A stretch of 64,000 nucleotides of DNA from Streptomyces katrae. Its GTDB lineage: Bacteria > Actinomycetota > Actinomycetes > Streptomycetales > Streptomycetaceae. Shown here one piece after another: positions 1 to 55,920 of this stretch. The DNA lies in assembly GCF_002028425.1 (NCBI RefSeq), contig NZ_CP020043.1:62001-126000 (forward strand), given 5' to 3'. The notes below the pieces were generated by a model. It did no database searches. It had not been told where the DNA came from and saw nothing but the letters and a program-made list of their open reading frames with translations. How positions within the stretch are numbered: the first letter of the stretch is position 1; each line of letters begins with the position of its first letter. The position numbers were made by a program, and so were the translations under genes.

Positions 1-2243
1 TCGACGAACTCGTCGAGCGCGTCCGGCTCCCCGGACACCACCACCGAGCGGGGCCCGTTGACGACGGCGACGCTCAGCCGGCCGTTCCACGGGGTGATGC
101 GCTCCGCCACCACGTCCGCGGACTCGGCGACCGACGCCATCCCCCCGTGCCCGATCAGGTCCACCAGGGCCCGGCTGCGCAGCGCGACGATCCGGGCGGC
201 GTCGCGCAGGGACAGCGCGCCGCTCACGCAGGCGGCGGCGATCTCGCCCTGGCTGTGCCCGACCACCGCGCCCGGTTCCACGCCCCAGGAGCGCCACAGG
301 CCGGCCAGGGAGACCATCATGGCGAACAGGGCCGGCTGGACCACGTCCACCCGGTCCAGGGACGGCGCCCCCGCCGCGCCCCGCACCACGTCGAGCAGCG
401 ACCAGTCGACCCACTCGGACAGGGCGTCCGCGCACGCGTCCAGGTGCCGGGCGAAGACCGGGAAGGCGGCGTACAGCTGCCGGCCCATGCCCACCCACTG
501 CGACCCCTGCCCGGGGAAGACGAACACGGTCCCGCCGGGCCTGGCGGCCGTCCCGCGCACCACCGCGGGGGAGTCGGCGCCCTCGGCCAGCGCGGCCAGC
601 GCCTCCAGCAGCCCTTCGCGGCCGCGCCCCAGCACCACCGCGCGGTGCTCGAACCGCGACCGGTGCGCCACCAGGGAGGCGCCGACGGCGGCGAGGTCGG
701 CCTGCGGATCGGCGGCGAGGCAGGCGCGCAGGGCGGCCGCCTGGCCCTGGAGGGCGGCCGCGCTCTTGCCGGAGAGGATCCAGGGCAGCAGTCCGCCGGC
801 GACCTCCGGGCCTTCGGCGGGCTCCGGCGCCGGCTCGTGCGGGGCCTCCTCCAGGATCACGTGGGCGTTGGTGCCGCTGACGCCGAACGAGGACACCCCG
901 GCCCGCCGCGGACCGTCCGGCCGGGTCCACTCCCGGCCTTCCACCAGCAGTTCGACGCCGCCGGAGGACCAGTCCACGTGCCGGGACGGCTCGCCCACGT
1001 GGAGGGTGCGCGGCAGGTGGCGGTGGCGCAGGGCCATCACGGTCTTGATGACCCCGGCGACCCCGGCGGCGGCCTGGGCGTGGCCCATGTTCGACTTCAG
1101 GGAGCCCAGCCACAGCGGGCGGTCCCGGTCACGGTCGCGGCCGTAGGTGGCGAGCAGGGCCTGCGCCTCGATGGGGTCGCCCAGGACGGTTCCGGTGCCG
1201 TGCGCCTCGACCAGGTCCACCTCGGACGCCGCGACGCCCGCGTTGGCCAGGGCCCGCCGGATCACCTTCTCCTGGGCGCGGCCGTTGGGCGCGGTCAGGC
1301 CGTTGCTGGCGCCGTCCTGGTTGACGGCGGAGCCGCGCAGCAGGGCGAGCACGGGATGGCCGTTGCGGCGGGCGTCGGACAGCCGCTCCAGCAGCAGGAC
1401 GCCGACGCCCTCGGCCCAGCCGGTGCCGTCCGCCCCGTCGGCGAAGGCCTTGCAGCGGCCGTCGGGCGAGAGCGCGCCCTGACGGGCGAACTCCACGAAG
1501 GCCGCGGGCGAGGACATCACCAGCGCCCCGCCCGCCAGCGCGAGCGAGCACTCCCCCGCGCGCAGCGACTGCGCCGCCATGTGCAGGGCCACCAGCGAGG
1601 ACGAGCACGCGGTGTCCAGGGACACCGCCGGCCCGGTCAGGCCCAGTTCGTACGCCACCCGTCCGGAGGCGACGCTCAGCGAGCTGCCGTACAGCAGGTA
1701 GCCCTCCAGTTCGCTCTGGCCCGCCTCCAGGAAGCGCCACCCGTACTCGGTGGAGCTCACCCCGGTGAAGACCCCGACGTCGGTGCCGCGGACGTCGGCG
1801 GGGACGATGCCGGCCCGTTCGAAGGCCTCCCAGGAGGTCTCCAGGAGCAGCCGCTGCTGCGGGTCGGTGGCAAGGGCCTCGCGGGGGCTGATGCCGAAGA
1901 ACTCGGCGTCGAACCCGGCCGGGTCGGCCAGGAACCCGCCGTGGCGGACGTGGGCGCTGCCGGGGGCGGCGGGGTCCGGGTCGTACACGTCGCGCCAGCC
2001 GCGGTCGGCGGGGAAGGCGTCCACGACGTCGCGGCCCTCGCGGACCACCTCCCACAGCTCCTCGGGCGAGGACACGCCCCCCGGGTAGCGGCAGGCCATG
2101 GCGACCACGGCGACGGGTTCGCCCCGGCCTGCCCTGAGGGCGTCGTTCTCCTGCCGGAGGCGGTCGCGCTCCTCCAGCAGGGTGCGCAGCGCCCGCTGGA
2201 CCCGGTCCGAGCCCTCCGCCGTCCGGTCCTCGGCGTTGGTCAT
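1..2243 (-). CDS. Modular PKS, extension module 3, KS-AT... (partial, cut by window edge)
   Basis: N-terminal part of a type I polyketide synthase whose 3' end lies left of base 1. ATG at 2243 follows a GAAGAGG ribosome-binding site and lies four bases after the stop of the preceding PKS gene, so the genes are probably translationally coupled. Residues 1-40 are a charged coiled-coil docking segment. The KS follows, with TACSSS active-site Cys near residue 213, then EAHGTGT and a NIGH-type motif (here SNMGHAQ). The AT starts near residue 560 and has GHSQGE near 663. GHSQG is commoner in methylmalonyl- than malonyl-specific ATs, but the decisive YASH/HAFH region is off the edge, so substrate is not called. 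Reductive domains and ACP are not visible. As the third extension module it should accept the chain from the 2248-8919 protein. Confidence 0.95.
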
Positions 2244-2247
2244 GTCA

Positions 2248-5200
2248 CTACCTCTTCTCATCGAGGGCCAGGTCGAGCAGCGCGTCCAGGTCCATGCCCG
2301 CGAGTTCCTCCGGGCCGGCGTCCTCCGCGGCGGCGGCCTCCTGCGCCGCCCCGGGTGCGGCCTCCGGCCCGGAGGGGGCCGCGCAGGCGAGGACGGCCTC
2401 CAGGAGGCCCGCCCTGCGCAGCGCGTCGACCGAGACGGTCCGCAGCACCTCCCGGACCTCCGCGTCCCGCTCCGGTGACGCGGCCGCGCCGGCGCCGGCG
2501 TCCTCGGGCGCCGCGGGGGTCAGCAGGCCGAGGAGGTGTCCGGCCAGTTCGCCCGGGGTGGGGTAGCTGAAGACGAGGGTGGAGGGCAGGCGCAGCCCGG
2601 TCGCGGCGGCCAGGCGGTTGCACAGTTCGACGGCGGTCAGCGAGTCGAAGCCGAGCTGGGTGAAGGGCTGGTCGGCGTCGACGGAGGTTCCGGCCGGGTG
2701 GCCGAGGACGATGGCGGCCTGGTCGCGCAGCCAGTCCAGGACGGCCGTCCGCGCCTCTTCGGCCGGCAGGGCCGCCAGGCCCGCGGGCAGGCCGGAGGGG
2801 CCGGCGTCCTGGGCGGTGCCCCTGCCGCCCCGGCGCGGACGTCCGGTTTCGGCGAGGCCGCGCAGCAGCGGCGGCAGTTCCCCGGCGGGCCTGCTCCGCA
2901 GGCCCGCGAGGTCGACCCGGGCCGGGACGAGGACCGCCTCGCCCTGCGCGCACGCCGCGTCGAACAGGGCGAGGGCCTCGGGGGTGGGCATCGGGGCGAT
3001 GCCCATCCGCCGGAGCCGGGTGAGGTCGGCCCGGTCCAGGCCCTCGGTCATCGCGCTGCTCTGTTCCCACCAGCCCCAGGCCAGGGAGGTGGCGGGCAGC
3101 CCGGCGGCCCTGCGGCGCGTGGCCAGGGCGTCCAGGAAGGCGTTCGCGGCGGCGTAGTTGGCCTGGCCGGCGGTGCCGAGCGTGCCGGCGAGGGCGGAGA
3201 ACGGGAGGAAGGCCGACAGGGTGTGGTCCCGGGTCAGTTCGTGCAGGTGGAGCGCACCGCCGGCCTTGGCGCGCAGCACCTCGCGCAGGCCGTCGGCGGT
3301 CAGCGACGCGAGGGTGCCGTCCGCCAGTACGCCCGCCGCGTGGACCACCGCGGTCAGCGGGTGCCCGGCCGGCATGTCGGCGAGCAGCGCGGCCACGGCG
3401 TCCCGGTCGGCGACGTCGCAGGCCACGACCCGGACGGCGGCGCCCGCCGCCTCCAGCTCCGTGACCAGTTCGGGCACCCCGTCGGCCGCCGGGCCCCGGC
3501 GGCTGGCCAGCAGCAGGCTCCGGACGCCGTGTTCCGCGGCCAGGTGCCGGGCCACGAGCGAGCCCACGCCGCCGGTCCCGCCGGTGACCAGTACGGTGCC
3601 GCCGCCGAAGCCGTCGCCGAGTTCGAGGACCAGCTTGCCGGTGTGGCGGCCTTGGCTCATCTCGCGGAAGGCCGCGCGCGCGTCGCGGACGTGGCGCACG
3701 GCGACCGGGCCGAGCCGTATCCGGCCGTCGGCGAACAGGGCCATGACCTCGCGGAACATCTCCTGGAGCGCGTCCGGGCCGGCCGAGCCGTAGAGGTCGA
3801 AGGCCTGGTAGCGGACCCCGGGGTGGTCGGCGGCGACCTGCCCGGGCTCGCGGATGTCCGTCTTGCCCATCTCTATGAAGTCGCCGCCGTGCGGGAGGAG
3901 TTGCAGCGAGGCGTCGACGAAGGTGTGCGCGAGGGAGTTCAGGACCACGTCGACCCCGCGGCCGCCGGTGGAGTCGAGGAACTTCTGTACGAAGTGCAGG
4001 TCGCGCGAGGACGCCAGGTGGGCGTCGTCCAGGCCCTGGGCGCGCAGGGCGGGCCATTTGGCGGGGCTCGCGGTCGCGTAGACCTCGGCGCCGACGTGCC
4101 GGGCCAGCTGGACGGCGGCCGTGCCGACGCCGCCGGCCGCGGCGTGGATGAGGATGCGCTGGCCCTTCTTCAGCCGCATCACGTGGAAGAGGGCGTAGTA
4201 GGCGGTGAGGAAGGTGCTGGGTACGGACGCCGCCTCGGCGTGGTTCCATCCGTCGGGGACCGCCGCCAGCAGGCGGTGGTCGGCCACGGCCACCCGGGCG
4301 AAGGCGCCGGGGAAGATGCCGGTCACCCGGTCGCCGGGCCGGAAGGCGGTCACGTCGGGCGCCGTCTCCAGGACCACGCCGGAGCCCTCGCTGCCGAGCC
4401 CGGCGTCGAAGGCCGTCCGGTCGATGAGGCCCAGGGCGATCGTGACGTCGCGGAAGTTGAGGCCCGCCGCCTGGACGGCGATGCGGACCTGTCCGCTCTC
4501 CAGGGGCGCCTCGGCCTCGGGGCAGGGCACCCAGGTGAGGTTCTCCAGTGTGCCCCGCTGCGGGATGCCCAGCCGGTGGGGGCCGTCCGACGGCGGTTCG
4601 AGGCGTCCGTCCGCGGGCGGGGCCGGCGCCAGCCGGGGGACGAGGTACGCGCCGTCGCGGACCGCCAGCTGCTCGTCGGGCAGGCGCAGGGCGCCGGGGA
4701 GGGCGGCCCAGGAGGTGTCGGCGTCGTCGGTGTCGACGAGGCGGAACCTGCCGGGGTGCTCGGTCTGGGCGGAGCGGACCAGGCCCCACACGGAGGCGCC
4801 GGGGAGGCTGCCGACGTCCTCGCCGGCAGCGGTGGCCAAGGCCTGGCGGGTGAGGACCACCAGGGTGGTCGCGGCGAGCCGTTCGTCGGCGAGGAACGCC
4901 TGGAGCAGGCCCAGTACGCGTGCGCCGGCGGCGGCGGTGGAGGCGAGGACGTCTTCGCCCGCGCCGTGCTGGTCGTCCAGGCAGAACACCAGGTGGCCCG
5001 GGGTGTTCGGGTCGGCGGGGAGTTCGCCGAGGGAGGTGTGGAGGGCGGCCGCGCCGTCGCCCGCCGCGACGAGCCGGGCGGCCCGGCCGTCCCGGGAGCC
5101 GAGCACGGCCCACGGCCCGGGGGCGCCGTCCTGCGGGGCGGCTGGGACCGGGCGCCACTCCACCGCGTACAGCGGGTGCTGCGGGCCGCCGCGGGCGGCG

Positions 5201-8200
5201 CGCACCTGCTCGGCGGTGGCCGGGCGGAAGGTCAGCGCCTCCACGCGGGCGCGCTCGCGGCCCTGTTCGTCGGCGACCGTGAGCGAGACGGTCCCTTCGC
5301 CGGCGGGGGTGAGGCGGACCCGGACGGTCGGGCCGCACGGCCCGGTGAGGGTCGCGCCGGACCAGGAGAACGGCATCCAGCCCTGCTCGTCGGTGACCGT
5401 GATGACCCCGCCGGCGACGACGGCGTGCAGGACGGTGTCGGTGAGCGCCGGGTGCAGGGCGAAGGCGCCCCCGGCGGCCTCCTCGGGGAGGGTGGCGAGG
5501 GCGAAGAGGTCCTGGCCGCGCCGCCAGACCTCGCGCAGTCCGCGGAAGGCCGGGCCGTAGTCGAAGCCGCGGTCGGCGAGGGAGTCGTAGAGGCCGTCGA
5601 AGGGGAGCCGTTCGGCGCCGGCCGGGGGCCAGACGGACAGGGGCCGGCCGGCCGCGTCCCGGCCGCCCCCGTCCGGGCCGGGCGCCGGTGCCGCTTCGTG
5701 CGGTGCCAGGGTGCCCAGGGCGTGGCGGGTCCAGCCGCCGTCGGCCGCGCCGTCCCCGGCGGGGCGCGCGTACACGTCCAGGGAGCGGTGTCCCGTCCCG
5801 TCGGCCGCGCCGACGACGACCCGCACCTGCACCTCGCCCTCGTCGGGCAGGACCAGGGGGACTTCCAGGGAGAGTTCGGCGACCGCGGGGCAGCCGGCGT
5901 GCGCGCCCGCCGACAGGGCCAGGTCCAGGTAGGCGGTCGCCGGGACGACGGCCGAGCCGAACACCGCGTGGTCGGCGAGCCAGCCGTGGGTGCGCAGGGA
6001 CCACAGGCCGGTGAAGACGGTCTCGCCGGTGCCGGGGTGGTCCACCACGGCGCCCAGCAGGGGGTGGCCGGGGTCCGACAGGCCGGCGGAGGCCACGTCC
6101 GCCGGGGCGGCCCCGGCCAGGAAGTCCAGCCAGTAGCGCTGCCGCTGGAAGGCGTACGTGGGGAGGTCCACGTGCGGGCGGGTGCCGGTGAGGGCGGCCC
6201 AGTCCACGGCGGCGCCCCGGACGTGCAGGGCGGCCAGCGCCCCGGCCAGGCCCTCCGCCGGGCCGCGGCCGCGCCGCGCGGAGGCCACGACCAGCGCGTC
6301 CACTCCCCCGGCGGCGAAGGCGTCCTTGGTGAGGCCCGCCAGGGTCGGGCCGGGGCCCACTTCGAGGAAGACGTCCGCCCCGGCGGCGCGGGCCCGTTCC
6401 ACGGCCTCGTGGAAGCGCACGGGCGCGCGGACGTGGTCGACCCAGTGGGCGGGCGACCGCAGTTCCCGGAGGGTGGCCTCGCGGCCCAGGAGGGTGGAGA
6501 CGACCGGGACCGCCGGTCCGCCGTCGGCGTCGGCGTCGGGGAAGGCCGGGAGGGCCGCCGCGAACTCCTCCAGGACCGGGTCCATCAGCGGGGAGTGGAA
6601 GGCGTGGTCGACCGGGAGGAGCTTCGCGGAGCGGCCCTCGGCGAGGAGCCGGTCGCGCAGGGCGTGGACCTCCTCGCGCAGTCCGGACACCACCACCGAC
6701 TCGGGGCCGTTGACGGCGGCGATCCCGACGCGGGCGCGCCCGTCGAGCAGCCGCTCCACCTCGGCCTGCGGGGCGCGGACGGCCAGCATGGCGCCGCGTT
6801 CGGTGACGGCCTGCATGGTGCGGCCGCGGGCGGCCACGAGCCGGGTCGCGGTGTCCAGGTCGAGCGCCCCGGCCACGTGGGCGGCGGCGATCTCGCCGAC
6901 GGAGTGGCCGATCAGGCGGTCCGGGCGCGGGCCGTACCGGGTCAGGGTCCGGTAGAGGGCGACCTGGAGGGCGAAGAGGGCGGGCTGCATGACGTCGGTG
7001 CGGTCGGCGCCCTCGGGCTCGTCGGCGAGGAGCAGGGGCCGCAGGGCGAAGGGGAGGTGGGTGTCGAAGCGGGCGCAGACCTCGTCGAGGGTCCGGGCGA
7101 ACACGGGGAACGCCGCGCACAGTTCGCGGGCCACGCCGGTCCACTGCGCCCCCTGCCCGGGGAACAGGAAGGCGGTGCCGCCGGATTCGGCGGCCGTGCC
7201 GCGGACCACGGCGGGGCTCTCCGCGCCCCCGGCGAGGGAGGCGAGGCCGTCGAGCAGCGCGTCACGGCCGTGGCCGAGGACGACGGCGCGGTGCTCGAAC
7301 CGTGCCCGGCCCGACACCAGGGAGGCGGCGATGCCCGCGAGGTCGGCGTCGGGGTCGGCGGCGGCGAAGGCGCGCAGCCGCTCGGCCTGGGCCCGCAGGG
7401 CCTGCTCCGAGCGGGCCGACAGCACCCAGGGCAGCGGACCGGCCGCGCCCAGGACGTCGGACCCGGGGGCGGACTCGGGGGCGGACTCGGGGGCGTTGCC
7501 CGGGGCGGTCCCGGGGGCGGCCTCCTCCTCGGGTGCCTGCTCCAGGATCAGGTGGGCGTTGGTGCCGCTGGCGCCGAAGCTGGACACCCCGGCCCGCCGG
7601 GGGCGGCCGGGCGCCGTGGTCCACTCCCGGGCCTCGGTGAGCAGTTCGACGGCGCCGGCCGACCAGTCCACGTGGGTCGAGGGGCGGTCCACGTGCAGGG
7701 TCCTGGGCATGATCCCGTGCCGCATCGCCATGATCATCTTGATGATGCCGCCGACGCCGGCGGCGGCCTGGGTGTGGCCGATGTTCGACTTCAGCGAGCC
7801 CAGCCACAGCGGGCTGCCGGGCTCCCGCCCCTGCCCGTAGGTGGCGAGCAGGGCCTGCGCCTCGATGGGGTCGCCGAGGGTGGTGCCGGTGCCGTGCGCC
7901 TCCACGACGTCGATGTCCCCGGCCTGGACGCGGGCGTTGGCCAGCGCGGCCCGGATCACCCGCTGCTGGGCGGGGCCGCTGGGGGCGGTCAGCCCATTGG
8001 AGGCGCCGTCCTGGTTGACGGCGGAGCCGCGGATGACCGCCCAGATGCGGCGCCCGTTGCGACGGGCGTCGGAAAGCCGCTCCAGGACCAGCATGCCGAC
8101 GCCCTCGGCGAAGCCGGTGCCGTCGGCCGCGTCGGCGAACGCCTTGCACCGGCCGTCGGCCGACAGGCCGCGCTGGCGGGCGAACTCCCGGAACACCTGG

Positions 8201-8919
8201 GGAGTGGCCATGACGGTGACCCCGCCGGCCAGGGCCAGGCCGCATTCGCCCTGCCGCAGCGACTGCACGGCCTGGTGCACCGTCACCAGCGAGGAGGAGC
8301 AGGCGGTGTCGGTGGAGACGGCCGGGCCCTCCAGGCCCAGCGCGTACGACACCCGGCCGGACGCCACGCTGAGCAGGGAGCCGGTCTGCGCGTAGCCCGA
8401 GATGACCTCGGGGGTGAAGTGGTGGTTGCCGTAGCCGAAGTAGGCGAGGCCCGCGAAGACGCCGGTGGCGCTGCCGCGCAGGGTGTGCGGGTCGATGCCG
8501 GCCCGTTCCAGGGCCTCCCACGAGGTCTCCAGGAGGAGCCGCTGCTGCGGGTCGGCGGCCAGCGCCTCGCGGGGGTTGATCTCGAAGAACTCGGCGTCGA
8601 AGTCCCCGGCGCCGTCGAGGAACCCGCCCGAGCGGGTGGAGCAGGTGCCGGGCCGGTCGGGGTCCGGGTCGTAGAGCCCTTCCAGGTCCCAGTGGCGGTC
8701 CCGCGGGAACTCCGAGACGGTGTCCGCGCCCGTCCGCACCAGCTCCCACAGGTCCTCCGGGGATCCTGCGCCGCCCGGATAGCGGCAGGCGACGCCCACC
8801 ACCGCGATGGGTTCGGCGGCGGCGTCCGTCAGCTCCTGGAGGCGTTTGCGGGTCTCGATCAGCTCGATCGAGGTCCGCCTGAGGTATTCCAGGACCTCGG
8901 CGCCGTTGTCGTTCGTCAT
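2248..8919 (-). CDS. Modular PKS, extension module 2: KS-AT(malonyl)-DH-ER-KR-ACP
   Basis: A 2223-residue single-module type I PKS with a full reductive loop. In order: N-terminal coiled-coil docking helix (1-38); KS with TACSSS Cys near 207; AT with GHSVGE near 671 and HAFH near 771, the usual malonyl-CoA signature; DH with the HxxxGxxxxP motif ([12 protein letters not shown]) near 983 and HPALTD Asp near 1160; ER with [11 protein letters not shown] nucleotide-binding motif near 1590; KR with TGGTGGVG near 1780; ACP with GFDSL, Ser near 2092. The short acidic C-terminus looks like a docking tail. The predicted result is a fully reduced unbranched two-carbon extension. In the KR, the Ser normally 13 residues before the catalytic Tyr is Ala (PFSALAG), so its efficiency is open to question. 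The LAD motif suggests a B-type KR. The start ATG follows GGGGAGAGCG and is nine bases after the module 1 stop. Confidence 0.97.
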
Positions 8920-14534: not shown

Positions 14535-17684
<3,150 letters not shown>

Positions 17685-24461: not shown

Positions 24462-28274
<3,813 letters not shown>

Positions 28275-28285: not shown

Positions 28286-37077
<8,792 letters not shown>

Positions 37078-37081
<4 letters not shown>

Positions 37082-47994: not shown

Positions 47995-48741
47995 CTAGGC
48001 GGACTTGAGGTCGGCGGTCTTCCGGTCGGCGCTCTCCAGCAGCCGGGTCACCCACTTGTCCACGGGCAGGCCGTGTGCGGCGGCCGCCCGGGAGAGGTGT
48101 TCGAGCTGGTCGGCGGAGAGCTCGATGGTGAGCTTCGTGACCTGCGGGCAGCGCTGCCCCACGGCCGCCGGGCCGGCCGGCCGGGCCGCCCCGGGCGGCG
48201 CGTCACCCCCGCCCGCGGGGAGGCCGGCCGTGCCGTTCTGCGCGGCGAGGCCCGCGCGGACCGACCGGCGCAGCTCGTTGCGCGACCACTTCTGCTGTTC
48301 GGCCCGGCGCAGCCAGTAGTCCTGCTCCGGCGGGGAGAGGCGGGCCACCTCGGCGTGGTGGGCGAAGCTGAGGCCGTCGCGCCTGCGGTGGTGGTCGAAC
48401 CGCCGCGCCACCCACGCGTAGTTGCGCAGGGTCTGGTAGTCGAGCCCGGTGCGCTCGATCGCCTCCTTGTAGCGCCGCCACCCGTAGGTGGCCTCGCCGA
48501 AGCGGAGCCAGTCGGCCAGCCACCAGGCCGAGGAGTTCCCGAGCTCGCGCAGGTTGGTCCCGATCTGCTCCCAGGACCGCTCCGGCAGGTTCGCCGGGAG
48601 GATCATCCCGGTCTTGCGCACTTCGGCCTGTGGTCCCGCGAAGGACAGGACCACATCGCCTTGGGCGGGCCCGCCGCCGTGGCCCGCAGGGCGGGCACGG
48701 TAGCTGCCCGTGGTTCTCGCAGCGCCGCTCACGATCTTCAT
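47995..48741 (-). CDS. LmbU-family pathway regulator
   Basis: A 248-residue protein of the LmbU/NovE/HmtD family, cluster-situated transcriptional regulators of lincomycin, novobiocin and himastatin. The conserved centre is visible: WEQIGTNL, SSAWWLADWL, YKEAIERTGLDYQTLRNY, VARRFD and LSFAHHAEVA, near residues 57-135. The C-terminal 45 residues (KLTIELSADQLEHL onwards) look like a ribbon-helix-helix segment, a possible DNA-binding part. It lies between mbtH (36 bases upstream) and the discrete A-domain gene. It likely activates the cluster; the CGCCGGCG-bearing palindromes in the window are candidate targets. The start region lacks a strong ribosome-binding site (GGGGG only). Confidence 0.9.
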   Translation of the reverse strand: MKIVSGAARTTGSYRARPAGHGGGPAQGDVVLSFAGPQAEVRKTGMILPANLPERSWEQIGTNLRELGNSSAWWLADWLRFGEATYGWRRYKEAIERTGLDYQTLRNYAWVARRFDHHRRRDGLSFAHHAEVARLSPPEQDYWLRRAEQQKWSRNELRRSVRAGLAAQNGTAGLPAGGGDAPPGAARPAGPAAVGQRCPQVTKLTIELSADQLEHLSRAAAAHGLPVDKWVTRLLESADRKTADLKSA

Positions 48742-48777: not shown

Positions 48778-48993
48778 TCAGTCCGCCGCCATGGCCTCGC
48801 GCAGGCTGCGGGGGCGCAGGTCGGTCCAGTTGCGTTCGACGTACTCCAGGCACGCGGCCCGGTCGGCCTCGCCGAAGACGACGCGCCAGCCCGCGGGCAC
48901 GTCGGCGAAGACCGGCCACAGGGAGTGCTGGTCCTCGTCGTTGACCAGGACGTGGAAGCGACCGTCCCCGTCGTCGAAGGGGTTCGTGCTCAC
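48778..48993 (-). CDS. mbtH: MbtH-like protein 1
   Basis: A 71-residue MbtH-family chaperone/activator of NRPS adenylation domains. The family signature NPFDD, the paired Trp in [17 protein letters not shown], and [15 protein letters not shown] are all present. GTG at 48993 has AGGAAG seven bases upstream. It is the first gene of the long minus-strand NRPS operon and should support several of the A domains encoded downstream. A second MbtH is encoded at 55699-55920. Confidence 0.97.
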
Positions 48994-49410
48994 GTGACAC
49001 TTCCTTAACTGTCATGGGGTGACTAGGGAAGAAAGACCGTCAGGCCGAAGGTGCGGGAGGGCGCGCGCCGGATGCGCCGGTCGGCGTCGTTCTGGAGGGC
49101 GCCCGGAGCTCCGGATCGAGCGGTGGGTGCGGCGTACTGGCCGTGCGGGCGGGACCGCGGATGCCGTTCGGGCCGGGCAGCCCGCGGTGCCGGTCCGACT
49201 CGGCGCCCACTGTAGCCACCGCCCTTTTGAGACACGGTCGAGTCCCGCTCGGGAGGGCGGGCGCAGGCTTTCGCGGGGCGCCCGGCGCGCGCCGCCTGAG
49301 GATCGTTGGAGAGCCGCCACACCTGCGGCACAGGCCACCTGATGTGCGCACCCCGCCGACCGGGCGCAGCCCTATGGTGCGGGGGTGCGCAGCCCGACCG
49401 AGGGAGAGAG
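48994..49410. promoter_or_regulatory. Divergent intergenic region upstream of mbtH/NRPS operon and thioesterase-SARP genes
   Basis: These 417 bases hold no convincing gene. They must carry the promoters for the 27-kb NRPS operon (leftward) and for the thioesterase/SARP pair (rightward). A weak 12/16 match to the window's 16-bp palindrome is at 49140-49155. No terminator-like hairpin or RNA gene is seen. Confidence 0.6.
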
Positions 49411-50157
49411 ATGGACAGCACACGTCCTGCCTTGCGCTTGTTCGTCCTGCACCACGCGGGCGGATCCCATCTGCCGTACCGCCGCTGGCCCGCCGGACTG
49501 CCGGACTCCTGGGACGTGCGGCTGCTGGACGCCCCGGGCCACGGCTTCCTCCTCGACCTTGCGCCGCTGGACGACGCGGGCCGCCTCGCCGACTTCCTGC
49601 TGGAGCACATCGAGTCCGAACTCACGTGCCCGTATGCCCTTTTCGGCCACAGTATGGGTGCTCTCGTCGCGTACGAGATGACCCGCCGGGCCGCCGGGCG
49701 GGGCCTGCCGCTGCCCGTGTGGGTCGGGGTCTCGGCGCGGACCGCGCCGCAGCCCGCCGGTCCGCCGGAGCCGTACCACGAGCTGCCCGACGCCGAGCTG
49801 CGGACCCGGCTGAACCTGCTGGGCGGCACGCCCGACGGGATCTTCGACGACCCCGACCTGTGGGCGGTGTTCGAGCCGGTCATCCGGGCCGACCTGCGCC
49901 TGGTGGAGGAGTGGCGTCCCGATCCCGGGGCGGACCCGCTGCCGGTGGCGCTCTCGGCCTACGCCGGCGCGGGCGACGCGCACGCCTCGCCGGCGCGGAT
50001 GGCCGGCTGGGGGGCGTACACCGAGCGCTTCCTGGGCCTGCGGGTCCTGGACGGCGGCCACTTCTACTTCCAGGACGATCCGCGGCCGCTGCTGCGGCGG
50101 ATCGAACGGGACGCGACCGCCGCGCTGGACGCGGCGGGCGCGGCGCGCTCCTCCTGA
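49411..50157 (+). CDS. Type II thioesterase (third copy)
   Basis: A 248-residue external thioesterase. The N-terminal LHHAGGSHLPYRRW, LFGHSMGALVAYE (nucleophile Ser near 81) and the C-terminal LDGGHFYFQDD, which carries the catalytic His, are intact. ATG at 49411 is chosen because GAGGGAGAGAG lies directly upstream; the open frame continues 105 bases further 5' without features. It starts a rightward unit with the SARP gene (33 bases between). It is probably an editing hydrolase for the PKS/NRPS carriers; why three such enzymes are kept is unclear. Confidence 0.94.
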   Translation: MDSTRPALRLFVLHHAGGSHLPYRRWPAGLPDSWDVRLLDAPGHGFLLDLAPLDDAGRLADFLLEHIESELTCPYALFGHSMGALVAYEMTRRAAGRGLPLPVWVGVSARTAPQPAGPPEPYHELPDAELRTRLNLLGGTPDGIFDDPDLWAVFEPVIRADLRLVEEWRPDPGADPLPVALSAYAGAGDAHASPARMAGWGAYTERFLGLRVLDGGHFYFQDDPRPLLRRIERDATAALDAAGAARSS

Positions 50158-50190
50158 CCCTTGCGTTGCCCGCCCGTGCGAGGAGAAGAC

Positions 50191-51195
50191 ATGCAGTTCC
50201 GCATTCTCGGTCTGGTGGAGGTCCGGGACGAAGAGGCCGGCCTGCACCTCCTGCCCACGGGCGCCAAACAGCGCGCGCTGCTGGGGGCGCTGGTGGTGAA
50301 GGCCGGGCACCACGTCTCCGTGCGGCAGCTCATCGACGAGCTGTGGGGCGAAGAGCCGCCCGTCAACGCGGAGAACGCGCTCCAGGTGCACGTGGCCCGG
50401 CTGCGCCGGCTGCTGTCCGGCCCGGAGGGCGGGCGGGAGGGCCGCCCGGACGCCGACCGGGGGGCGCGGCAGCCGTGGATCGTGACGACCTCGCGGGGTT
50501 ACACCCTGCGGCAGGGCCCCGTGGAGACGGACGCGGCGTGCTTCCAGCAGCTCACCGACACCGCCCGGCGGATCCTGCACGAGGACCCGGGGCGGGCCGG
50601 TGAGCTGCTGCGCCGGGCCCTGTCGCTGTGGCGCGGCCCCGCCCTGGAGGGCAGCGTGCTCGGTGACATCTGCGCGGGGCGGGCGGCGCAGCTGGAGGAG
50701 CACCGGCTGACCGCGCTGGAGATGATGTACGACGCCTACCTGCGCACCGGGCGGCACGGCGAGATCACCGGCGAGCTGATGGTGCTCACCACCGACCACC
50801 CCATGCGGGAGCGGTTCTACGACCTGCTGATGGTCGCCTTCTACCGGTGCGGCCGGCAGGCGGAGGCGCTGCGCGTGTACGAGCGGGCCCGCCACCGGAT
50901 GGTGCACGACCTCGGGGTCGAGCCGGGCCCGGCCCTGCGCCGCCTGATGCAGGCGATCCTCCAGCACGACCCGGCCCTCGGCCCGGAGGCCCGCTCCCTG
51001 CCGTCCGGCCCGCCGCCGGCGGTCGCGCCGGTGCCCGTGGGGGCGGCCTCGACGGCCGGGGACGCGGCGCTGCCGCTGATGGAGGAGATCGCCCGGCTGC
51101 AGGACCGCATCGAGCGGCTACAGCGGGAGCAGCGTCAACTGCTGTGCCGGTTCGAGGAGTTGACCGGAGGGACGCTGCCGCGGGCGACGGCCTGA
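50191..51195 (+). CDS. SARP-family transcriptional activator
   Basis: A 334-residue Streptomyces antibiotic regulatory protein. The N-terminal winged-helix DNA-binding domain spans about 1-105 (ALLGALVVKAGHHVSVRQLIDELWG, NALQVHVARLRRLL, GYTLR). The bacterial transcriptional activation domain spans about 110-260 (LLRRALSLWRGPAL, HRLTALEMMYDAYLRTG, LGVEPGPALRRL). A Pro/Ala linker and a C-terminal coiled coil (EEIARLQDRIERLQREQRQL) complete it. ATG at 50191 has GAGGAGAAG upstream. It is a small SARP without an ATPase module and probably activates the cluster. Its last 61 bases overlap the convergent serine-hydrolase-like gene. Confidence 0.94.
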   Translation: MQFRILGLVEVRDEEAGLHLLPTGAKQRALLGALVVKAGHHVSVRQLIDELWGEEPPVNAENALQVHVARLRRLLSGPEGGREGRPDADRGARQPWIVTTSRGYTLRQGPVETDAACFQQLTDTARRILHEDPGRAGELLRRALSLWRGPALEGSVLGDICAGRAAQLEEHRLTALEMMYDAYLRTGRHGEITGELMVLTTDHPMRERFYDLLMVAFYRCGRQAEALRVYERARHRMVHDLGVEPGPALRRLMQAILQHDPALGPEARSLPSGPPPAVAPVPVGAASTAGDAALPLMEEIARLQDRIERLQREQRQLLCRFEELTGGTLPRATA

Positions 51196-52346
51196 GGGCA
51201 GTACTCGGCGGTGACGACGGGGAGGATGGTCTCCGCGCCCCAGTTGGCGTTGTAGTTGAACGTCAGCTGGTGGCGGGCGTCCTCGGTGAAGGCGGCCAGG
51301 GAGATCCAGCCCAGCGCGCCGCCGTCGTGGTACCAGAGGGTGGTGCCGCAGCCCAGGGTGAGCCGTTCGATGCCCAGTCCGTAGGACGCGCCCGGGAAGT
51401 CGGGGTTGTCGACGGTGGTCTTCATCTCCTTCAGCTGCTGCGGGGGCAGCAGGCGGCCGCGCATGAGGGCTTCGTAGAACCGGTTCAGATCGGCCGTGCT
51501 GGAGATGATGTCGCCGTTGCCCCAGCTCTGCGAGGGGTTCGCCTCGGTGACGTCGTCGATCCGCTCGGGCCGGTCGGCGAAGAGCCGGGAGTAGCCGCGG
51601 GCGCTGGGCCGGGGCAGGAGGGAGTTCGTGCCGGGGTTGGAGGTCGCCTTGAGGTCCAGGGGCTCGATGATGCGCCTGCCCACCTCCGCCGCGTAGGGCC
51701 GGCCGGCGGCCTTCTCCAGGACGAGCGCGGCCAGCACGTCGTTGGTGTTGGAGTACCAGTGGCGGGCGCCGGGCCGGAAGGGCGGTTCGTGGGAGAGGGC
51801 CACCTTCACGCGCTGCTCGGGCGTCAGGGTGTCGTAGCGGTGCTGGAGGAAGCCGTCGCCGCTGAGGTAGGTCGCGGCGTACTGCGCGTCGGCGAGGAAG
51901 TCGTAGAGGCCGCTGGTGTGGTTCAGGAGCTGGCGTACGGTGATGGCCCGGCCGTCGTTGCCGTTGCCCGTCACCAGGCCGGGCAGGAACCGTTCCACGC
52001 TGTCGTCGAGGCTCAGCTTCCCCTCCGCCTCCATCTGGAGGAGGGCGGTGGCGACGAAGGTGTTGGTGATGCCGCCGATACGGAACCGGTCGTTCTTGCC
52101 GCGCGGCGCCCCCGTCTGCCGGTCGCCCACGCCCGCCGCCGTCTTCCACACTCCCCCGGCGTCGCGCGCCTCGGCGGCGATGCCGGGGACTCCGGCGGCG
52201 ACGGCCGCCTCGATCGCGCGCTGCGTCGCCTGGTGGCCGGCCGCCGGGGGAGCCTCGTCCCGCGCCGCGGCGGACCCGGTGAAGGCGGTGGCCAGCAGGG
52301 CGGCCGCCGCCAGTGCGACCACCGCGGCTCTCGGTCTTCTCCGCAT
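51135..52346 (-). CDS. Secreted serine-hydrolase (class C beta-lactamase fold) lacking the catalytic Ser and Lys
   Basis: A 403-residue exported protein of the beta-lactamase class C / D-Ala-D-Ala carboxypeptidase family. A Sec signal peptide occupies about 1-28 (MRRR, hydrophobic Ala/Leu core, AAA cleavage region). Family motifs include the YxN motif (WYSNTND), LLNHTSGL, and an HxG-like HDGGALG. The nucleophile motif, normally SxxK as in GSVTKTF, reads GGITNTF here, so both the catalytic Ser and its Lys partner are gone; the codons GGC and AAC are clear. It cannot work by the standard mechanism and may be a binding protein, or decaying. It overlaps the convergent SARP gene by 61 bases. Confidence 0.9.
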   Translation of the reverse strand: MRRRPRAAVVALAAAALLATAFTGSAAARDEAPPAAGHQATQRAIEAAVAAGVPGIAAEARDAGGVWKTAAGVGDRQTGAPRGKNDRFRIGGITNTFVATALLQMEAEGKLSLDDSVERFLPGLVTGNGNDGRAITVRQLLNHTSGLYDFLADAQYAATYLSGDGFLQHRYDTLTPEQRVKVALSHEPPFRPGARHWYSNTNDVLAALVLEKAAGRPYAAEVGRRIIEPLDLKATSNPGTNSLLPRPSARGYSRLFADRPERIDDVTEANPSQSWGNGDIISSTADLNRFYEALMRGRLLPPQQLKEMKTTVDNPDFPGASYGLGIERLTLGCGTTLWYHDGGALGWISLAAFTEDARHQLTFNYNANWGAETILPVVTAEYCPQAVARGSVPPVNSSNRHSS

Positions 52347-52523
52347 CGTCTTGCCCCTCTCGTGGTTGTCGTCCGTGAAATCCGTGGAACCCCCGGGCCC
52401 TGGAACCCGTGGAATCCGTGAAACCCCTGGCATCCGTGCGGTTCGAACGCTGCTCCGGCAACGCTCCAGCCCGCCCCGCAACAGTTCTGGCCGGTTGTGT
52501 ACGCCCCTTCTCCTGGAGGCACG
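52347..52523. promoter_or_regulatory. Divergent intergenic region with nonamer repeats
   Basis: A 177-base gap between the serine-hydrolase-like gene and the second LmbU-like gene. It is dominated by a degenerate 9-bp repeat (see the repeat entry at 52372-52441). It carries both promoters. The LmbU-like ATG has GGAGG four bases upstream. Confidence 0.6.
52372..52441. repeat. Degenerate 9-bp direct repeats (TCCGTGRAA)
   Basis: Units in register: TCCGTGAAA 52372, TCCGTGGAA 52381, CCCGTGGAA 52406, TCCGTGAAA 52415, CCCCTGGCA 52424, TCCGTGCGG 52433, with a slipped CCCTGGAA copy at 52398. The array lies in a divergent promoter gap beside a regulator gene, so it may be a multi-copy binding site. 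Confidence 0.7.
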
Positions 52524-53222: not shown

Positions 53223-53264
53223 GGCCCCGGCGCGGCCCGGCGGCGCCCCGGGGCGGCCGGCTCG

Positions 53265-53912
53265 TCAGGGCAGCCGGCTCATCAGGCCCGCGGTCTCGCG
53301 CTTGTACGCGCACCCGCTCTGCCCGAACGACTCGCGCACCCGCTCGCGCACCTCGTCCGGCTGCTCCTGGCTGAGCTTGAACATGCCCTCGGCTCCGGTC
53401 ACCGTGAACCGGAAGGCCCCCACGTCGGGCACGATCTTCCTGAAGTAGTCGAGCGAGCCGGTCATGTCCCAGCCGTCGCCGAACGTCCCCTCGAAGGCGC
53501 GCACGGTGGACTGCACCACCTCCAGCGTCTCCTCGATCGATTCGATCTTCTCGACCACGCCCCGGACGTGCACCGAGGTGAAGTTCCAGGTCGGAGCGGC
53601 CGGGGTCTTGGCGTAGACCGTGGGCGAGACGTAGGAGTGCGGGCCGGTGAAGGTCAGCAGCAGGACACCGCCCGTCTCCAGGGCCGCCCAGTGCGGGTTG
53701 GCCCGGTTCATGTGTCCGAGCAGCAGGGCGCCCGGAAGAAGCCCGCCGGGCCGGTCGCCGGAGGTCGCGGGATCGAAGATGACCGGGAGGTGGGTGGCGA
53801 ACGGACCGTCCTCGGGGCTGCCGTTGGCCACCGCGAGCGCCATGGGATTGCCCCGGACCAGGTCCACCATCCACGAACCGTCCGGTTCACGGTAAAAGCT
53901 CGGCACGAACAC
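53265..53912 (-). CDS. ktzT: Piperazate synthase (KtzT-like, PaiB-family)
   Basis: A 215-residue protein of the FMN-binding split-barrel / PaiB family. The start FVPSFYREPD, the central GHMNRANPHW and the sequence PTVYAKTPAAPTWNF are hallmarks of that family. KtzT of the kutzneride pathway is a heme protein of this family that forms the N-N bond of piperazic acid from N5-hydroxyornithine. The assignment here rests on the divergent neighbour, an ornithine N-hydroxylase, and on two piperazate-type A domains in the window. A general PaiB regulator is the alternative and is unlikely in this setting. GTG at 53912 starts the protein; the AAGGGTG upstream is a moderate ribosome-binding site. Confidence 0.9.
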   Translation of the reverse strand: MFVPSFYREPDGSWMVDLVRGNPMALAVANGSPEDGPFATHLPVIFDPATSGDRPGGLLPGALLLGHMNRANPHWAALETGGVLLLTFTGPHSYVSPTVYAKTPAAPTWNFTSVHVRGVVEKIESIEETLEVVQSTVRAFEGTFGDGWDMTGSLDYFRKIVPDVGAFRFTVTGAEGMFKLSQEQPDEVRERVRESFGQSGCAYKRETAGLMSRLP

Positions 53913-54131
53913 CCGGATTCACCCTTTCGGCAATTGGCTTCTGAAATCCCGGCCGACCATACCGGCGTCCCGTCGACAGGACAACGATTTCGGCCACGGG
54001 GCATACGGACAAGCCGTCGAACGGCTTTCAGGCACTCTTCGAGTTGCCTCGGCGCGCTCTCCGGGCAACACTTCAGAACGGTCTCTCGGGCCACCGGCCG
54101 AGTTTTCCAGACGCAAGGGGGAGAATTTCCT
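53913..54131. promoter_or_regulatory. Divergent promoter region of the piperazate genes
   Basis: A 219-base gap between the ktzT-like and ktzI-like starts that must drive both. It contains a 16-bp palindrome at 53967-53982 related to those upstream of the P450/PKS operon. No gene is seen. Confidence 0.65.
53967..53982. promoter_or_regulatory. Candidate operator, palindrome copy 3
   Basis: GTCCCGTCGACAGGAC shares GTCCCG-YCG-RC-R-GGAC with the copies at 20038 and 20179 (13/16 identity to the perfect copy). It lies 55 bases upstream of the piperazate synthase start. The changes occur mostly as paired C-to-T and G-to-A substitutions that keep dyad symmetry (GTCC/GGAC arms and a GTCGAC centre). 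Confidence 0.5.
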
Positions 54132-55490
54132 ATGGGCATAACGGGCAGGCGCGACCAAGAGATCCAAGAGATCCTCGACGTGGTCGGCATCGGGTTCGGC
54201 CCGTCGAACATGTCGCTCGCCATCGCCTTGAAGGAGCACGGGGCGAGCGCCCCGCAGCATCCGGTCAGGTCCCACTTCTTCGAGCGGCAGCCCACGTTCG
54301 GCTGGCACCGGAACATGCTGCTGCCGTCGGCGACCATGCAGATCTCGTTCCTCAAGGACCTGGCGACCTTCAGGAACCCGGTGTCCCGGTTCAGCTTCGT
54401 CTCGTACCTGCACGCCTCGAACCGGCTGGTGCAGTTCGTGAACAACCAGAGCTTCATCCCGACCCGGCAGGAGTTCCACCAGTACCTGGAGTGGGCGGCC
54501 GCCGGCCTGAGCGACCAGGTCACCTACGGCTGCGAGGTCACCGCGATCCGCCCCGTCACCGGCGCCGGGCTGCGGGCCCCCGACCTGCTGGAGGTCGAGG
54601 TGCGCTCCGGCGACGGCGCGAGCCGGGTGGTCCTGGCCCGCAACGTGGTCGTCTCCACGGGGCTGGTGCCGCGCCTGCCGGAGGGCGTGACGGCCGGGGA
54701 ACGGGTGTGGCACAGCTCGGAGTTCCTGACCCGGTTCAACGCCCAGGACCGGGCCTCCCTCAAGAGCGTGGCGGTGGTCGGCGCCGGGCAGAGCGCGGCC
54801 GAGGTCACCCGGTTCTTCCACGACTCGCTGCCCCATGCCCGGGTGACGGCGGTCATCCCGTCCTACGGCTACTCCGTGGCCGACGACACCCCCTTCGCCA
54901 ACCAGGTGTTCGACCCGGACACGGTGGACGAGTACTACTTCGGCACCGAGGGGGCGCGGGACGCGTTCTGGCGCTACCACCGCAACACGAACTACTCGGT
55001 GGTCGACGCCGACGTCATCCGGTCCCTCTACCAGCGCCAGTACGACGAGCAGGTGAGCGGCGTCCAGCGGCTGCACTTCCGCAACCTCACCCGGGTCGAC
55101 TCGGTGGCGGGCTCCGACAGCGGGGCGCGGGTGGTGCTGCGCTCGCTGCTGGACGACCGGAGGGAGGAGCTGGCGGTCGACGCGCTGGTGTTCGCCAGCG
55201 GCTACGACGGCCTGGACCCGGCCCGGCTGCTCGGCGAGGAGTTCGACCGGCACTTCCAGCGGGACGCGGCGGGCCGCCACCGGGTGGAGCGCGACTACCG
55301 CCTGGTCGCCACCTCGGGGCTGACCTGCGGGGTCTACCTCCAGGGCGGCACCGAGCACAGCCACGGCCTGACGTCGGCCCTCCTGTCGAACATCGCGATC
55401 CGCAGCGGCGAGATCGCCGACTCGATCGTGCTGCGGCGCACCCAGCGGGAGCTGGGGCGCCACGCGGAGGAGGCACCCTCGGCCGCCTGA
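54132..55490 (+). CDS. ktzI: L-ornithine N5-monooxygenase (KtzI-like)
   Basis: A 452-residue class B flavin N-hydroxylase of the KtzI/PvdA/SidA family, converting ornithine to N5-hydroxyornithine with FAD, NADPH and O2. The FAD motif GIGFGPSNMS is near residue 21, the substrate-region motif MQISFLKDLATFRNPVS is near 75, the NADPH motif VVGAGQSAAEV is near 215, and the C-terminal ATG-type motif LTSALLSN is near 417. ATG at 54132 has GGGGAG upstream; the open frame continues 5' only as noise. The gene is divergent from the piperazate synthase, and the pair supplies piperazic acid for the NRPS. No hydroxamate acyltransferase is nearby, so a siderophore role is less likely. Confidence 0.95.
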   Translation: MGITGRRDQEIQEILDVVGIGFGPSNMSLAIALKEHGASAPQHPVRSHFFERQPTFGWHRNMLLPSATMQISFLKDLATFRNPVSRFSFVSYLHASNRLVQFVNNQSFIPTRQEFHQYLEWAAAGLSDQVTYGCEVTAIRPVTGAGLRAPDLLEVEVRSGDGASRVVLARNVVVSTGLVPRLPEGVTAGERVWHSSEFLTRFNAQDRASLKSVAVVGAGQSAAEVTRFFHDSLPHARVTAVIPSYGYSVADDTPFANQVFDPDTVDEYYFGTEGARDAFWRYHRNTNYSVVDADVIRSLYQRQYDEQVSGVQRLHFRNLTRVDSVAGSDSGARVVLRSLLDDRREELAVDALVFASGYDGLDPARLLGEEFDRHFQRDAAGRHRVERDYRLVATSGLTCGVYLQGGTEHSHGLTSALLSNIAIRSGEIADSIVLRRTQRELGRHAEEAPSAA

Positions 55491-55698
55491 GGCGGCGACG
55501 CCGGGACGGGGCCGGGGTGCCGATGGGCCCGGGGTGCCGGTGGGCCCGGGGTGCCGGTGGGCCCGGGGTGCCGGTGGGCCCGGGGTGCCGGTGGGCCCGG
55601 GGTGCCGGTGGGCCCGGGGTGCCGGTGGGCCCGGGGTGCCGGGGCGGCCCCGAGAGCCGCGGAGGCGACCGCCCCGGGCCCGGGCCCGCCCCGCGCGG
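55491..55698. other. Convergent intergenic region with 17-bp tandem repeats
   Basis: A gap of 208 bases between the convergent ktzI-like and mbtH genes. The first two thirds are the tandem repeat described separately; the rest is GC-rich without a gene. The repeats could act as a termination block for both genes. Confidence 0.6.
55514..55642. repeat. 17-bp tandem repeat, about 7.5 copies
   Basis: GGGGTGCCGGTGGGCCC begins at 55514, 55531, 55548, 55565, 55582, 55599, 55616 and (partial) 55633. The first copy has A in place of one G; the others are identical. There are no spacers, so this is a minisatellite-like array and not a CRISPR. Each unit contains the palindrome GGGCCC. Confidence 0.95.
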
Positions 55699-55920
55699 TC
55701 AGGCCGCGCCGGCGTCCATGGCCTCGCGCAGGCTCCGCGGCCGCAGGTCGCTCCAGTGCTCCTCCACGTAGGCGAGGCACCGCTCACGGCTCTCCTCGCC
55801 GAACACGACCCGCCAGCCGGCGGGCACTTCGGCGAACGAGGGCCACAGCGCATGCTGGAGCTCGTCGTTCACCACCACGTGGAACCGGCCCTCGGCATCG
55901 TCGAACGGGTTACTGCCCAT
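55699..55920 (-). CDS. mbtH: MbtH-like protein 2
   Basis: A 73-residue MbtH-family protein with [22 protein letters not shown] and [13 protein letters not shown]. It is strongly similar to the first MbtH (48778-48993), sharing the tail [15 protein letters not shown], which suggests a recent duplication. An ATG lies at 55920 with GGAG seven bases upstream; an ATG three bases earlier is equally possible. It is monocistronic and convergent with ktzI, and is the last gene I would place in the biosynthetic cluster on this side. Confidence 0.96.

What the first reader, a model, noticed from the sequence alone, without database searches (positions are those of the whole stretch)
1..55920. Probable azinothricin-type hybrid cluster with a readable hexadepsipeptide plan
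Seen: a KSQ-initiated PKS, five in-line NRPS modules ending in TE, two piperazate-type A codes, a glycine A domain with N-MT, a P450-PCP pair, an A-PCP-FAD trio, and ktzI/ktzT-like genes. Known: azinothricin, aurantimycin, polyoxypeptin and verucopeptin combine a polyketide acyl chain, a hydroxylated starter amino acid such as 3-hydroxyleucine, two piperazates and N-hydroxy or N-methyl residues in a 19-membered ring. Inferred order: acyl - (beta-hydroxy amino acid) - D-Piz - X - N-Me-Gly - Piz - Y, cyclised by TE. Two unassigned A codes and a separate loading trio make a new congener plausible.
Basis: partly seen in the sequence, partly recalled or inferred. Interest (0 to 1): 0.85.

Follow-up and report, generated by a model that had tools for sequence, protein, structure and literature searches.

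The report
Azinothricin-type antibiotic gene cluster

Summary
The finding is right. The window carries an azinothricin-family PKS/NRPS cluster in the gene order of aurantimycin (art) and polyoxypeptin (ply). It runs about 4.3 kb past the left edge, where the sixth NRPS module (ArtT/PlyX homologue) lies. Predicted plan: acyl - 3-hydroxyleucine - D-Piz - N-hydroxy amino acid (probably Ala) - sarcosine - Piz - (N-hydroxy)Ala. The nearest cluster found is in S. katrae ISP-5550 (20 genes compared, 85-99% identical). So: a new member of a known kind.

Two points go beyond the finding. (1) The first module's A domain lacks the A10 catalytic lysine in 48 of 52 readable rows (window and art included), and the neighbouring stand-alone TE has Cys for Ser in all 51 of 53 related genomes that have it. 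This argues that 3-hydroxyleucine is carried to the first module by this TE (as by CysB in cystobactamid), not hydrolysed and re-activated as proposed for art and ply. (2) The loading AT has the VPGH motif and the first extender AT YASH, the reverse of art, which predicts a positional isomer of the acyl chain. Both are inferences. Ten Streptomyces plasmids hold similar blocks.

The parts
1..2261 (-). PKS module KS-AT-ACP, ArtR/PlyW position (runs on left of the window to -879); AT motif YASH
2248..8919 (-). PKS module KS-AT-DH-ER-KR-ACP, ArtQ/PlyV position; AT motif HAFH (malonyl)
8929..14493 (-). PKS module KS-AT-DH-KR-ACP, ArtP/PlyU homologue; AT motif YASH; DH second motif reads HPALLH
14535..17684 (-). 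Loading PKS KSQ-AT-ACP, ArtO/PlyT homologue; AT motif VPGH (rare for a loader in the relatives read)
17749..18513 (-). Stand-alone TE with Cys nucleophile (AHCAG), ArtN/PlyS homologue; proposed aminoacyl shuttle
18510..19760 (-). Cytochrome P450, ArtM/PlyR homologue; proposed leucyl-PCP beta-hydroxylase
   Evidence: role from PMC3943440
19757..19990 (-). Stand-alone PCP, ArtL/PlyQ homologue
20320..21834 (+). FAD-dependent monooxygenase (aromatic-hydroxylase type); proposed acyl-chain hydroxylase, unproven
21933..22694 (-). ABC transporter permease, ArtK position (family not searched; by sequence and position)
22691..23647 (-). DrrA-type ABC transporter ATPase, ArtJ/PlyJ position
23723..24418 (-). 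Type II TE with Ser (GHSLG), ArtI/PlyI position
24462..28274 (-). NRPS C-A-PCP-TE, ArtH position; code DMTQIGWTWK
28286..37081 (-). NRPS C-A(DILQLG, Gly)-MT-PCP-E(HRxxxDR, probably dead)-C-A(DVFSVAAYAK, Piz)-PCP, ArtG position, with an N-methyltransferase-type insert
37078..44865 (-). NRPS C-A(DVFSVASYAK, Piz)-PCP-E(HHxxxDG)-C-A(DVPDEALVEK)-PCP, ArtF/PlyF position
44910..46103 (-). FAD-dependent oxidoreductase, ArtE/PlyE homologue; proposed N-hydroxylase
46117..46335 (-). Stand-alone PCP, ArtD/PlyD homologue
46335..47900 (-). Stand-alone A domain, ArtC/PlyC homologue; code DLRHLGQDVK
47995..48741 (-). LmbU-family regulator, ArtB homologue
48778..48993 (-). MbtH-like protein, ArtA homologue
49306..50157 (+). 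Type II TE (GHSMG)
50161..51195 (+). SARP-type regulator (BTAD)
51135..52430 (-). Beta-lactamase-fold serine hydrolase (true start approximate; longest ORF reaches 53201)
53265..53912 (-). KtzT-like piperazate synthase (PF04299; MFKLSQE)
54129..55490 (+). KtzI-like ornithine N5-monooxygenase (start approximate)

Best explanation
An azinothricin-family cyclic hexadepsipeptide cluster. Four PKS modules build a branched acyl chain, starting from a decarboxylated alkylmalonyl unit on the KSQ loader. The first NRPS module (left of the window) joins the chain to 3-hydroxyleucine; five further modules add D-Piz, an N-hydroxy amino acid (probably Ala), sarcosine, Piz and (N-hydroxy)Ala; the TE closes the ring on the 3-OH. 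Piperazate comes from KtzI and KtzT, N-hydroxy amino acids from the A-PCP-FAD trio. Leucine is hydroxylated on a free PCP by the P450 and, since the first module's A domain looks dead, is most likely handed to that module's PCP by the neighbouring Cys-type TE (this step alone: about 0.55). Shown by sequence: genes, domains, codes, motif losses and conservation. Inferred: substrates, product and transfer step.
For: Synteny with art and ply. Piz codes equal or near those of PlyF-A1/ArtF-A1 and HmtL-A1. The module-3 code shares 7 of 9 positions with PlyH-A, assigned to N-hydroxyvaline. The MT insert matches the NRPS chain 5wmm at 2.8e-80, and BLAST finds no match to it in the ORFs read from the art locus holding ArtF, whose MT is assigned to O-methylation. 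First-module A domain: A10 Lys absent in 48 of 52 readable rows, window included; A8 Lys kept in 3 of 52; A3 loop degenerate by eye; C and PCP motifs kept. Mean pairwise identity falls to 0.639 in this A domain against 0.751 (C) and 0.855 (PCP); in the next module it is 0.812 (A), 0.776 (C) and 0.881 (PCP). Cys TE in 51 of 53 related genomes, with the P450 within the same 3.3-3.7-kb stretch in all 51. plyC, plyQ, plyS and plyR knock-outs each abolish polyoxypeptin (fits the rival too).
Against: No product was seen. dN/dS of the dead-looking A domain is 0.40 and 0.49: higher than its C domain (0.17, 0.25) but well under 1 and not far above the A domain of the next module (0.33, 0.37), so it is not decaying freely. 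Amycolatopsis oliviviridis has the dead A domain but no such TE at E 1e-30 genome-wide, and no stand-alone A domain and no P450 above 30% identity in the two stretches read. Two clusters (S. aureocirculatus G046, Salinispora mooreana G047) have an intact A domain and also the TE-P450 cassette; in Streptosporangiaceae NEAU-GS5 (G050) the A domain is intact and the TE absent. LgnA, a proven shuttle, has Ser, so Cys is no proof of transfer. Transfer by this TE has not been assayed.
Confidence: 0.93

Rival explanations
1. Published route: the stand-alone TE hydrolyses 3-hydroxyleucine off the free PCP, and the A domain of the first module (ArtT/PlyX type) re-activates it.
For: Proposed for ply and art. 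TE knock-out abolishes production in ply, as this route also predicts. Three related clusters with another layout keep an intact A domain, two of them with the TE. dN/dS of the A domain stays under 0.5.
Against: A10 Lys, A3 loop and A8 Lys are lost in the first-module A domain of window and most relatives, art included (L117). The diperamycin authors note that this code reads valine in all three clusters although the residue is Thr or 3-hydroxyleucine. The TE has Cys, not Ser.
Confidence: 0.25
2. The stand-alone A domain (46335-47900) loads leucine directly onto the first module's PCP in trans, the P450 works there, and the TE only edits.
For: ArtC activates Val, Ser and Leu in vitro; trans-acting A domains are known (capreomycin, PMC12400406, start of abstract seen).
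Against: Does not explain why the free PCP and the TE are kept beside the P450 and are essential in ply.
Confidence: 0.15
3. A different piperazate scaffold class (kutzneride-, himastatin- or dentigerumycin-like) rather than azinothricin type.
For: Piz codes are shared with kutzneride and himastatin A domains; the dpn authors report 65% gene similarity of dpn to incarnatapeptin/dentigerumycin.
Against: art/ply gene order, four PKS modules, first NRPS module after the PKS, and six NRPS modules in the azinothricin order.
Confidence: 0.04

Closest known systems
Cluster of Streptomyces katrae NRRL ISP-5550 (NZ_JZWV01000088.1 and other contigs; product not known to me)
   Same: 20 genes compared, some over part of their length: 85-99% identical (second PKS 86, loader 87, nB 88, nL 89-91, nC 93, P450 95, nA 96, FAD enzyme 96, MbtH 99); same codes for the stand-alone A domain and modules 2 and 3, DILQLG start of module 4, and VPGH loader AT
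   Different: Scattered over draft contigs; KtzT, KtzI and the last two PKS genes were not compared
Aurantimycin cluster art, S. aurantiacus JA 4570 (PMC5031334; L050)
   Same: Gene order ArtA to ArtT, module order, two Piz codes, second E domain reported inactive, degenerate ArtT A domain
   Different: art has a Ser code with MT in module 3 and no MT listed in ArtG (Gly); loader AT YASH and ArtP AT VPGH, here reversed; ktzI/ktzT not identified in art
Polyoxypeptin cluster ply (PMC3943440)
   Same: Order of the core genes; A-PCP-FAD trio; PCP-P450-TE; N-hydroxy-type A domain
   Different: ply has extra genes plyL-P, MT in the last module, hydroxylated methylproline; KtzI homologue not found in the ply cluster
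Diperamycin cluster dpn (PMC10888640)
   Same: Six NRPS modules, Piz codes, DMTQ-type last code, in-cluster piperazate genes, second E domain reported inactive
   Different: Ser code with MT in module 3, Thr as first residue, A-PCP as one protein
Cystobactamid CysB / legonmycin LgnA aminoacyl shuttles (PMC7966384, PMC8748450)
   Same: Amino acid held on a separate carrier protein is moved to a module whose A domain lacks the A10 lysine (cystobactamid) or is missing (legonmycin)
   Different: LgnA uses Ser, the window TE has Cys; the window TE's nearest solved structures are type II TEs such as RifR; relation to CysB/SyrC not tested

Membership tests
Azinothricin family (art/ply/dpn type) | KSQ loader plus three extender PKS modules: DH-KR, DH-ER-KR, none | tested here: met
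Azinothricin family (art/ply/dpn type) | Six NRPS modules: C-A-PCP, then five modules ending in TE, E domain after the first Piz | tested here: met
Azinothricin family (art/ply/dpn type) | Two piperazate-type A domains | tested here: met
   reference codes
Azinothricin family (art/ply/dpn type) | Stand-alone A, PCP, FAD enzyme, PCP, P450 and TEs (art, ply) | tested here: met
Azinothricin family (art/ply/dpn type) | 19-membered hexadepsipeptide product with acyl side chain | not testable with these tools
   needs LC-MS/MS and NMR
Piperazate synthase (KtzT) | PF04299 family with KLSQ motif flanked by M and E (as given in PMC10888640) | tested here: met
   PF04299 122.1 bits, only match in the genome; sequence reads MFKLSQE, with one residue between M and K
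Backbone N-methyltransferase-interrupted A domain | MT inserted between A8 and A9, related to N-methylating inserts | tested here: met
   position; 5wmm at 2.8e-80. That 5wmm is the TioS N-methylating A domain is recalled; the hit itself says only 'NRPS'. TioS inserts as N-methylases:
Aminoacyl-shuttling TE | Receiving module lacks a working A domain | tested here: met
   by motif only: A10 Lys absent in the window and in 48 of 52 readable rows in all; activity not assayed
Aminoacyl-shuttling TE | Transfers, rather than hydrolyses, the aminoacyl group | not testable with these tools
   needs protein MS with purified PCPs
Aminoacyl-shuttling TE | Sequence kinship with SyrC/CmaE/CysB | not tested
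   no such sequence was compared; nearest solved structures are type II TEs

The most novel reading that the evidence does not exclude
In nearly all clusters of the azinothricin layout the first NRPS module is loaded in trans: its A domain is a kept but catalytically dead scaffold, and the P450-made beta-hydroxy amino acid is carried from a free PCP to it by a Cys-type thioesterase. This would correct the pathways proposed for art and ply and explain why the first code does not fit the residue. In the window's subgroup, in addition, the alkylmalonyl-selective AT sits in the loader instead of the first extender module, giving a positional isomer of the acyl chain.
Probability: 0.55. Interest if true: 0.55.

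Novelty: new member of a known kind. Interest (0 to 1): 0.42.

Why it matters
Azinothricins are potent antibacterial and cytotoxic compounds, and few of their clusters have been tied to products. The plan here is readable enough to predict a mass and to design knock-outs. The loss of the first A domain's catalytic lysine across most relatives makes a puzzle noted in print (the first code reads valine) directly testable, and would mark a natural trans-loading interface at the PKS/NRPS junction.

Tried and rejected
Rejected: that the A-PCP-FAD trio is a separate loading module (it is the ArtC/D/E set). Rejected: that the unassigned codes point to new building blocks (DVPDEALVEK is in 32 of 80 loci). 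Rejected: that ORF 53568-55490 is a fusion with KtzT (its first part is probably out-of-gene translation; KtzT is on the other strand).

Led nowhere: the homologue search with the last 636 residues of the 37078-44865 product listed 120 of 3516 hits, all very long NRPSs, none a ply protein; so PlyF-A2's own code was not seen, and module 3 as N-hydroxyalanine rests on likeness to PlyH-A. Alkylmalonyl supply was not found in the genes of the cluster that I scanned. The genome has five crotonyl-CoA reductase matches over the cut-off, one of them beside a KAS III gene at C1:2589216-2591431, whose partner cluster I did not look up.

Rows and cases left out: of the 80 loci I took 53 for the first-module and TE searches; the other 27 were short contigs or more distant loci. 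Streptomyces sp. SDr-06 (G017) had no close loader match (49%) and is not in the count. In one search the second-PKS rows of NWU339 (G012) and WAC 01529 (G028) matched at only 52-54% and probably read another module; two rows (G003, G015) did not cover that AT. In one search row L130 (broken frame) was left out of the first-module identities. Three of 55 rows (L244, L247, L251) could not be read at A10.
Full report
Where it lies. The window is bases 62001-126000 of contig C2 (348,805 bases) of an 8.06-Mb genome in three contigs. The best listed protein matches of the FAD enzyme are Streptomyces. I joined the window to its own flanks to read genes across the edge. The core cluster lies on the minus strand from MbtH (48778-48993) down to a sixth NRPS gene at -4255..-971 (C2:57745-61029). 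Accessory genes are on the plus strand at 20320-21834 and 49306-51195 and on both strands at 51135-55490. Left of the sixth NRPS gene there are a type II TE and an aminotransferase (C2:56877-57638, C2:55523-56824), which may belong to it.

The PKS order is KSQ-AT-ACP, KS-AT-DH-KR-ACP, KS-AT-DH-ER-KR-ACP, KS-AT-ACP. The DH of the second reads HPALLH where the next PKS reads HPALTD, and the art homologue also reads HPALLH, so a hydroxyl should be kept, as reported for art and dpn. The NRPS line is C-A-PCP (left of the window), C-A-PCP-E-C-A-PCP, C-A-MT-PCP-E-C-A-PCP, C-A-PCP-TE. The first E has HHLVVDG, the second HRLAVDR and is probably dead, as reported for dpn and art.

What it is. Table 1 of the aurantimycin paper and of the polyoxypeptin paper (read: parts 1-3 of 5 and of 6 of the main texts, plus passages) lists the same core genes in the same order: MbtH, regulator, A, PCP, FAD enzyme, three NRPSs, TE, two ABC genes, PCP, P450, TE, four PKSs, C-A-PCP; ply has five further genes (plyL-P) in between. 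Of the diperamycin paper I read parts 1-3 of 7 and passages. The nearest relative found is S. katrae ISP-5550: 20 genes compared, some over part of their length, 85-99% identical.

Codes. Peptide position 2 DVFSVASYAK and position 5 DVFSVAAYAK: piperazate (reference codes). A pairwise alignment in the same call read these as DVFSVASATK and DVFTVAAATK; the ArtG-A2 code is DVFTVAAYAK. Position 3 DVPDEALVEK: 7 of 9 positions as PlyH-A, assigned to N-hydroxyvaline, hence an N-hydroxy amino acid, probably Ala. Position 4 DILQLGVIW: glycine, with an MT insert related to 5wmm and no BLAST match to it in the locus holding ArtF, whose MT is assigned to O-methylation, hence sarcosine. The MT insert upsets the automatic reading of its A10 lysine, which is present ([10 protein letters not shown]). 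Position 6 DMTQIGWTWK: like dpn module 10 (DMTQVGWV), N-hydroxyalanine there. In the 80 loci kept of 283 found, DVPDEALVEK followed by a DILQL start occurs in 4 (L022, L023, L024, L055).

The first module. In the window its A domain reads GTLWWGGVSR. The A3 loop, the A4 Asp, A8 and the A10 lysine are gone, while HHLISDG of the C domain and GGNSL of the PCP are kept. I took its homologues from 53 genomes: 30 and 23. In the alignment of 55 rows, window included, 3 could not be read at the A10 position; 48 of the other 52 lack the lysine (44 R, one each T, L, G, W) and 4 keep it. Of these 4, three are in clusters of another layout, where the match lies in a frame of about 2100-2400 residues (L248, L249, L250), and one is a second, 41%-identical NRPS in a genome already counted (L252). 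The aurantimycin module itself (L117) lacks it. The A8 lysine is kept in 3 of 52. At the A4 place, 25 of the 31 rows still have Asp (counted by eye), so that loss is not general. As a control, all 31 rows of the next module of the same lines keep the GK, SGS/TxGxPKG and QVKVRG motifs. Mean pairwise identity is 0.639 for the first module's A domain against 0.751 (C) and 0.855 (PCP) over 30 rows; for the next module it is 0.812 (A), 0.776 (C), 0.881 (PCP) over 31 rows. Against this, dN/dS of that A domain is 0.40 and 0.49 in two comparisons: still under purifying selection, and only modestly above the next module's A domain, 0.33 and 0.37. So I read it as kept for structure, not as decaying.

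The Cys thioesterase. 17749-18513 has AHCAG where the three other stand-alone TEs of the region have GHS.G. Its homologue was found in 29 of 30 genomes (E 1e-60) and in 22 of a further 23 (E 1e-30; the 24th genome given was G030 again, without a match again). All 51 best copies have Cys. Of more distant copies read, five at 36-50% have Cys (L161, L275-L278) and four at 31-37% have Ser (L279-L282). The P450 is in the same 3.3-3.7-kb stretch in all 51 and the small PCP in 50. The exceptions are G030 (Amycolatopsis oliviviridis: dead A domain, no TE) and G050 (intact A domain, no TE). G046 and G047 have the TE-P450 cassette with an intact A domain. So cassette and dead A domain are not strictly tied; a simple order of events would be cassette first, loss of the A domain later.

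Mechanism. The ply and art papers propose that the TE hydrolyses 3-hydroxyleucine and that the ArtT/PlyX A domain activates it again. The dpn authors note that this code reads valine in all three clusters although the residue is Thr or 3-hydroxyleucine. In cystobactamid, an A domain lacking the same A10 lysine did not load its substrate, and CysB moves the aminoacyl group to the module (passages). LgnA, a type II TE with Ser, does the same in legonmycin (part 1 of 8 and passages). The same logic fits here: the stand-alone A domain loads leucine on the free PCP, the P450 hydroxylates, the Cys TE transfers to the first module. The ply knock-outs of A, PCP, P450 and TE fit both models. In the parts and passages of the three azinothricin cluster papers that I read, I saw no mention of a dead first A domain. 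Among the titles and abstract starts listed by the searches I saw none proposing transfer for this family; subscription papers are mostly not held and most listed papers were not opened. A related proposal exists for other piperazate lipopeptides (PMC10609185, passages), and the review PMC8949500 (passages) lists other inactive A domains helped in trans, so the principle is known.

Acyl chain. Loader AT motif by genome (29 of 30 read): VPGH 3 (S. katrae ISP-5550, WM6378, Actinoplanes siamensis), YASH 21, AGH 2, HAFH 2, FASH 1; the window has VPGH. The second PKS has VPGH in 12, YASH in 12, other in 3, not covered in 2 (two of these rows are doubtful, see Tried and rejected). Window, S. katrae ISP-5550 and WM6378 have VPGH in the loader and YASH in the second PKS; art has the reverse. 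VPGH is taken in the ply and art papers as the mark of the branched alkylmalonyl unit. If so, the window's chain starts with the branched unit and carries methyl on the carbon next to the one bearing the ring oxygen, an isomer of the aurantimycin chain with the same formula. Members of the family with such a chain may already be known (L-156,602, by recall only).

Mobility. Ten plasmid records, all ten listed rows Streptomyces, hold at least 80% of the block 37078-48993, at 81-85% identity; one of them, NBC_01296, also has KtzT- and KtzI-type genes and ornithine-making genes beside it. The window's contig is of plasmid size, but I did not test whether it is a plasmid.

Verdict. The cluster is a new member of a known kind. 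The trans-loading reading is an inference of moderate strength, testable at once by feeding free 3-hydroxyleucine to a mutant lacking the Cys TE.

Noticed in passing
window 37078-48993 versus plasmid records: Azinothricin-type blocks sit on ten Streptomyces plasmids of about 230-530 kb, and the window's own contig is 349 kb: the family may often be plasmid-borne.
   Followed up: partly
L294 (NZ_CP130721.1), 28794-38713: In Streptomyces sp. NBC_01296 ornithine-making genes (argB, argC, argJ, acetylornithine transaminase) lie around the KtzT/KtzI-type genes, apparently to feed piperazate.
   Followed up: no
window 51135-52430: A beta-lactamase-fold serine hydrolase is found beside the cluster in relatives too (L022, L023, L024; annotated in NBC_01296); it might act on the product or give self-protection.
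   Followed up: no
L065 and L283 (Amycolatopsis oliviviridis): A related cluster with the dead first A domain but, in the stretches read, no stand-alone A domain or Cys TE and only a 29%-identical P450: its loading route is unexplained.
   Followed up: partly
own genome C1:2589216-2591431: A crotonyl-CoA reductase-type gene beside a KAS III gene, a possible unlinked source of the alkylmalonyl unit.
   Followed up: no
window 57114-58994: Protein kinase with a C-terminal ricin-type lectin domain, just outside the cluster.
   Followed up: no
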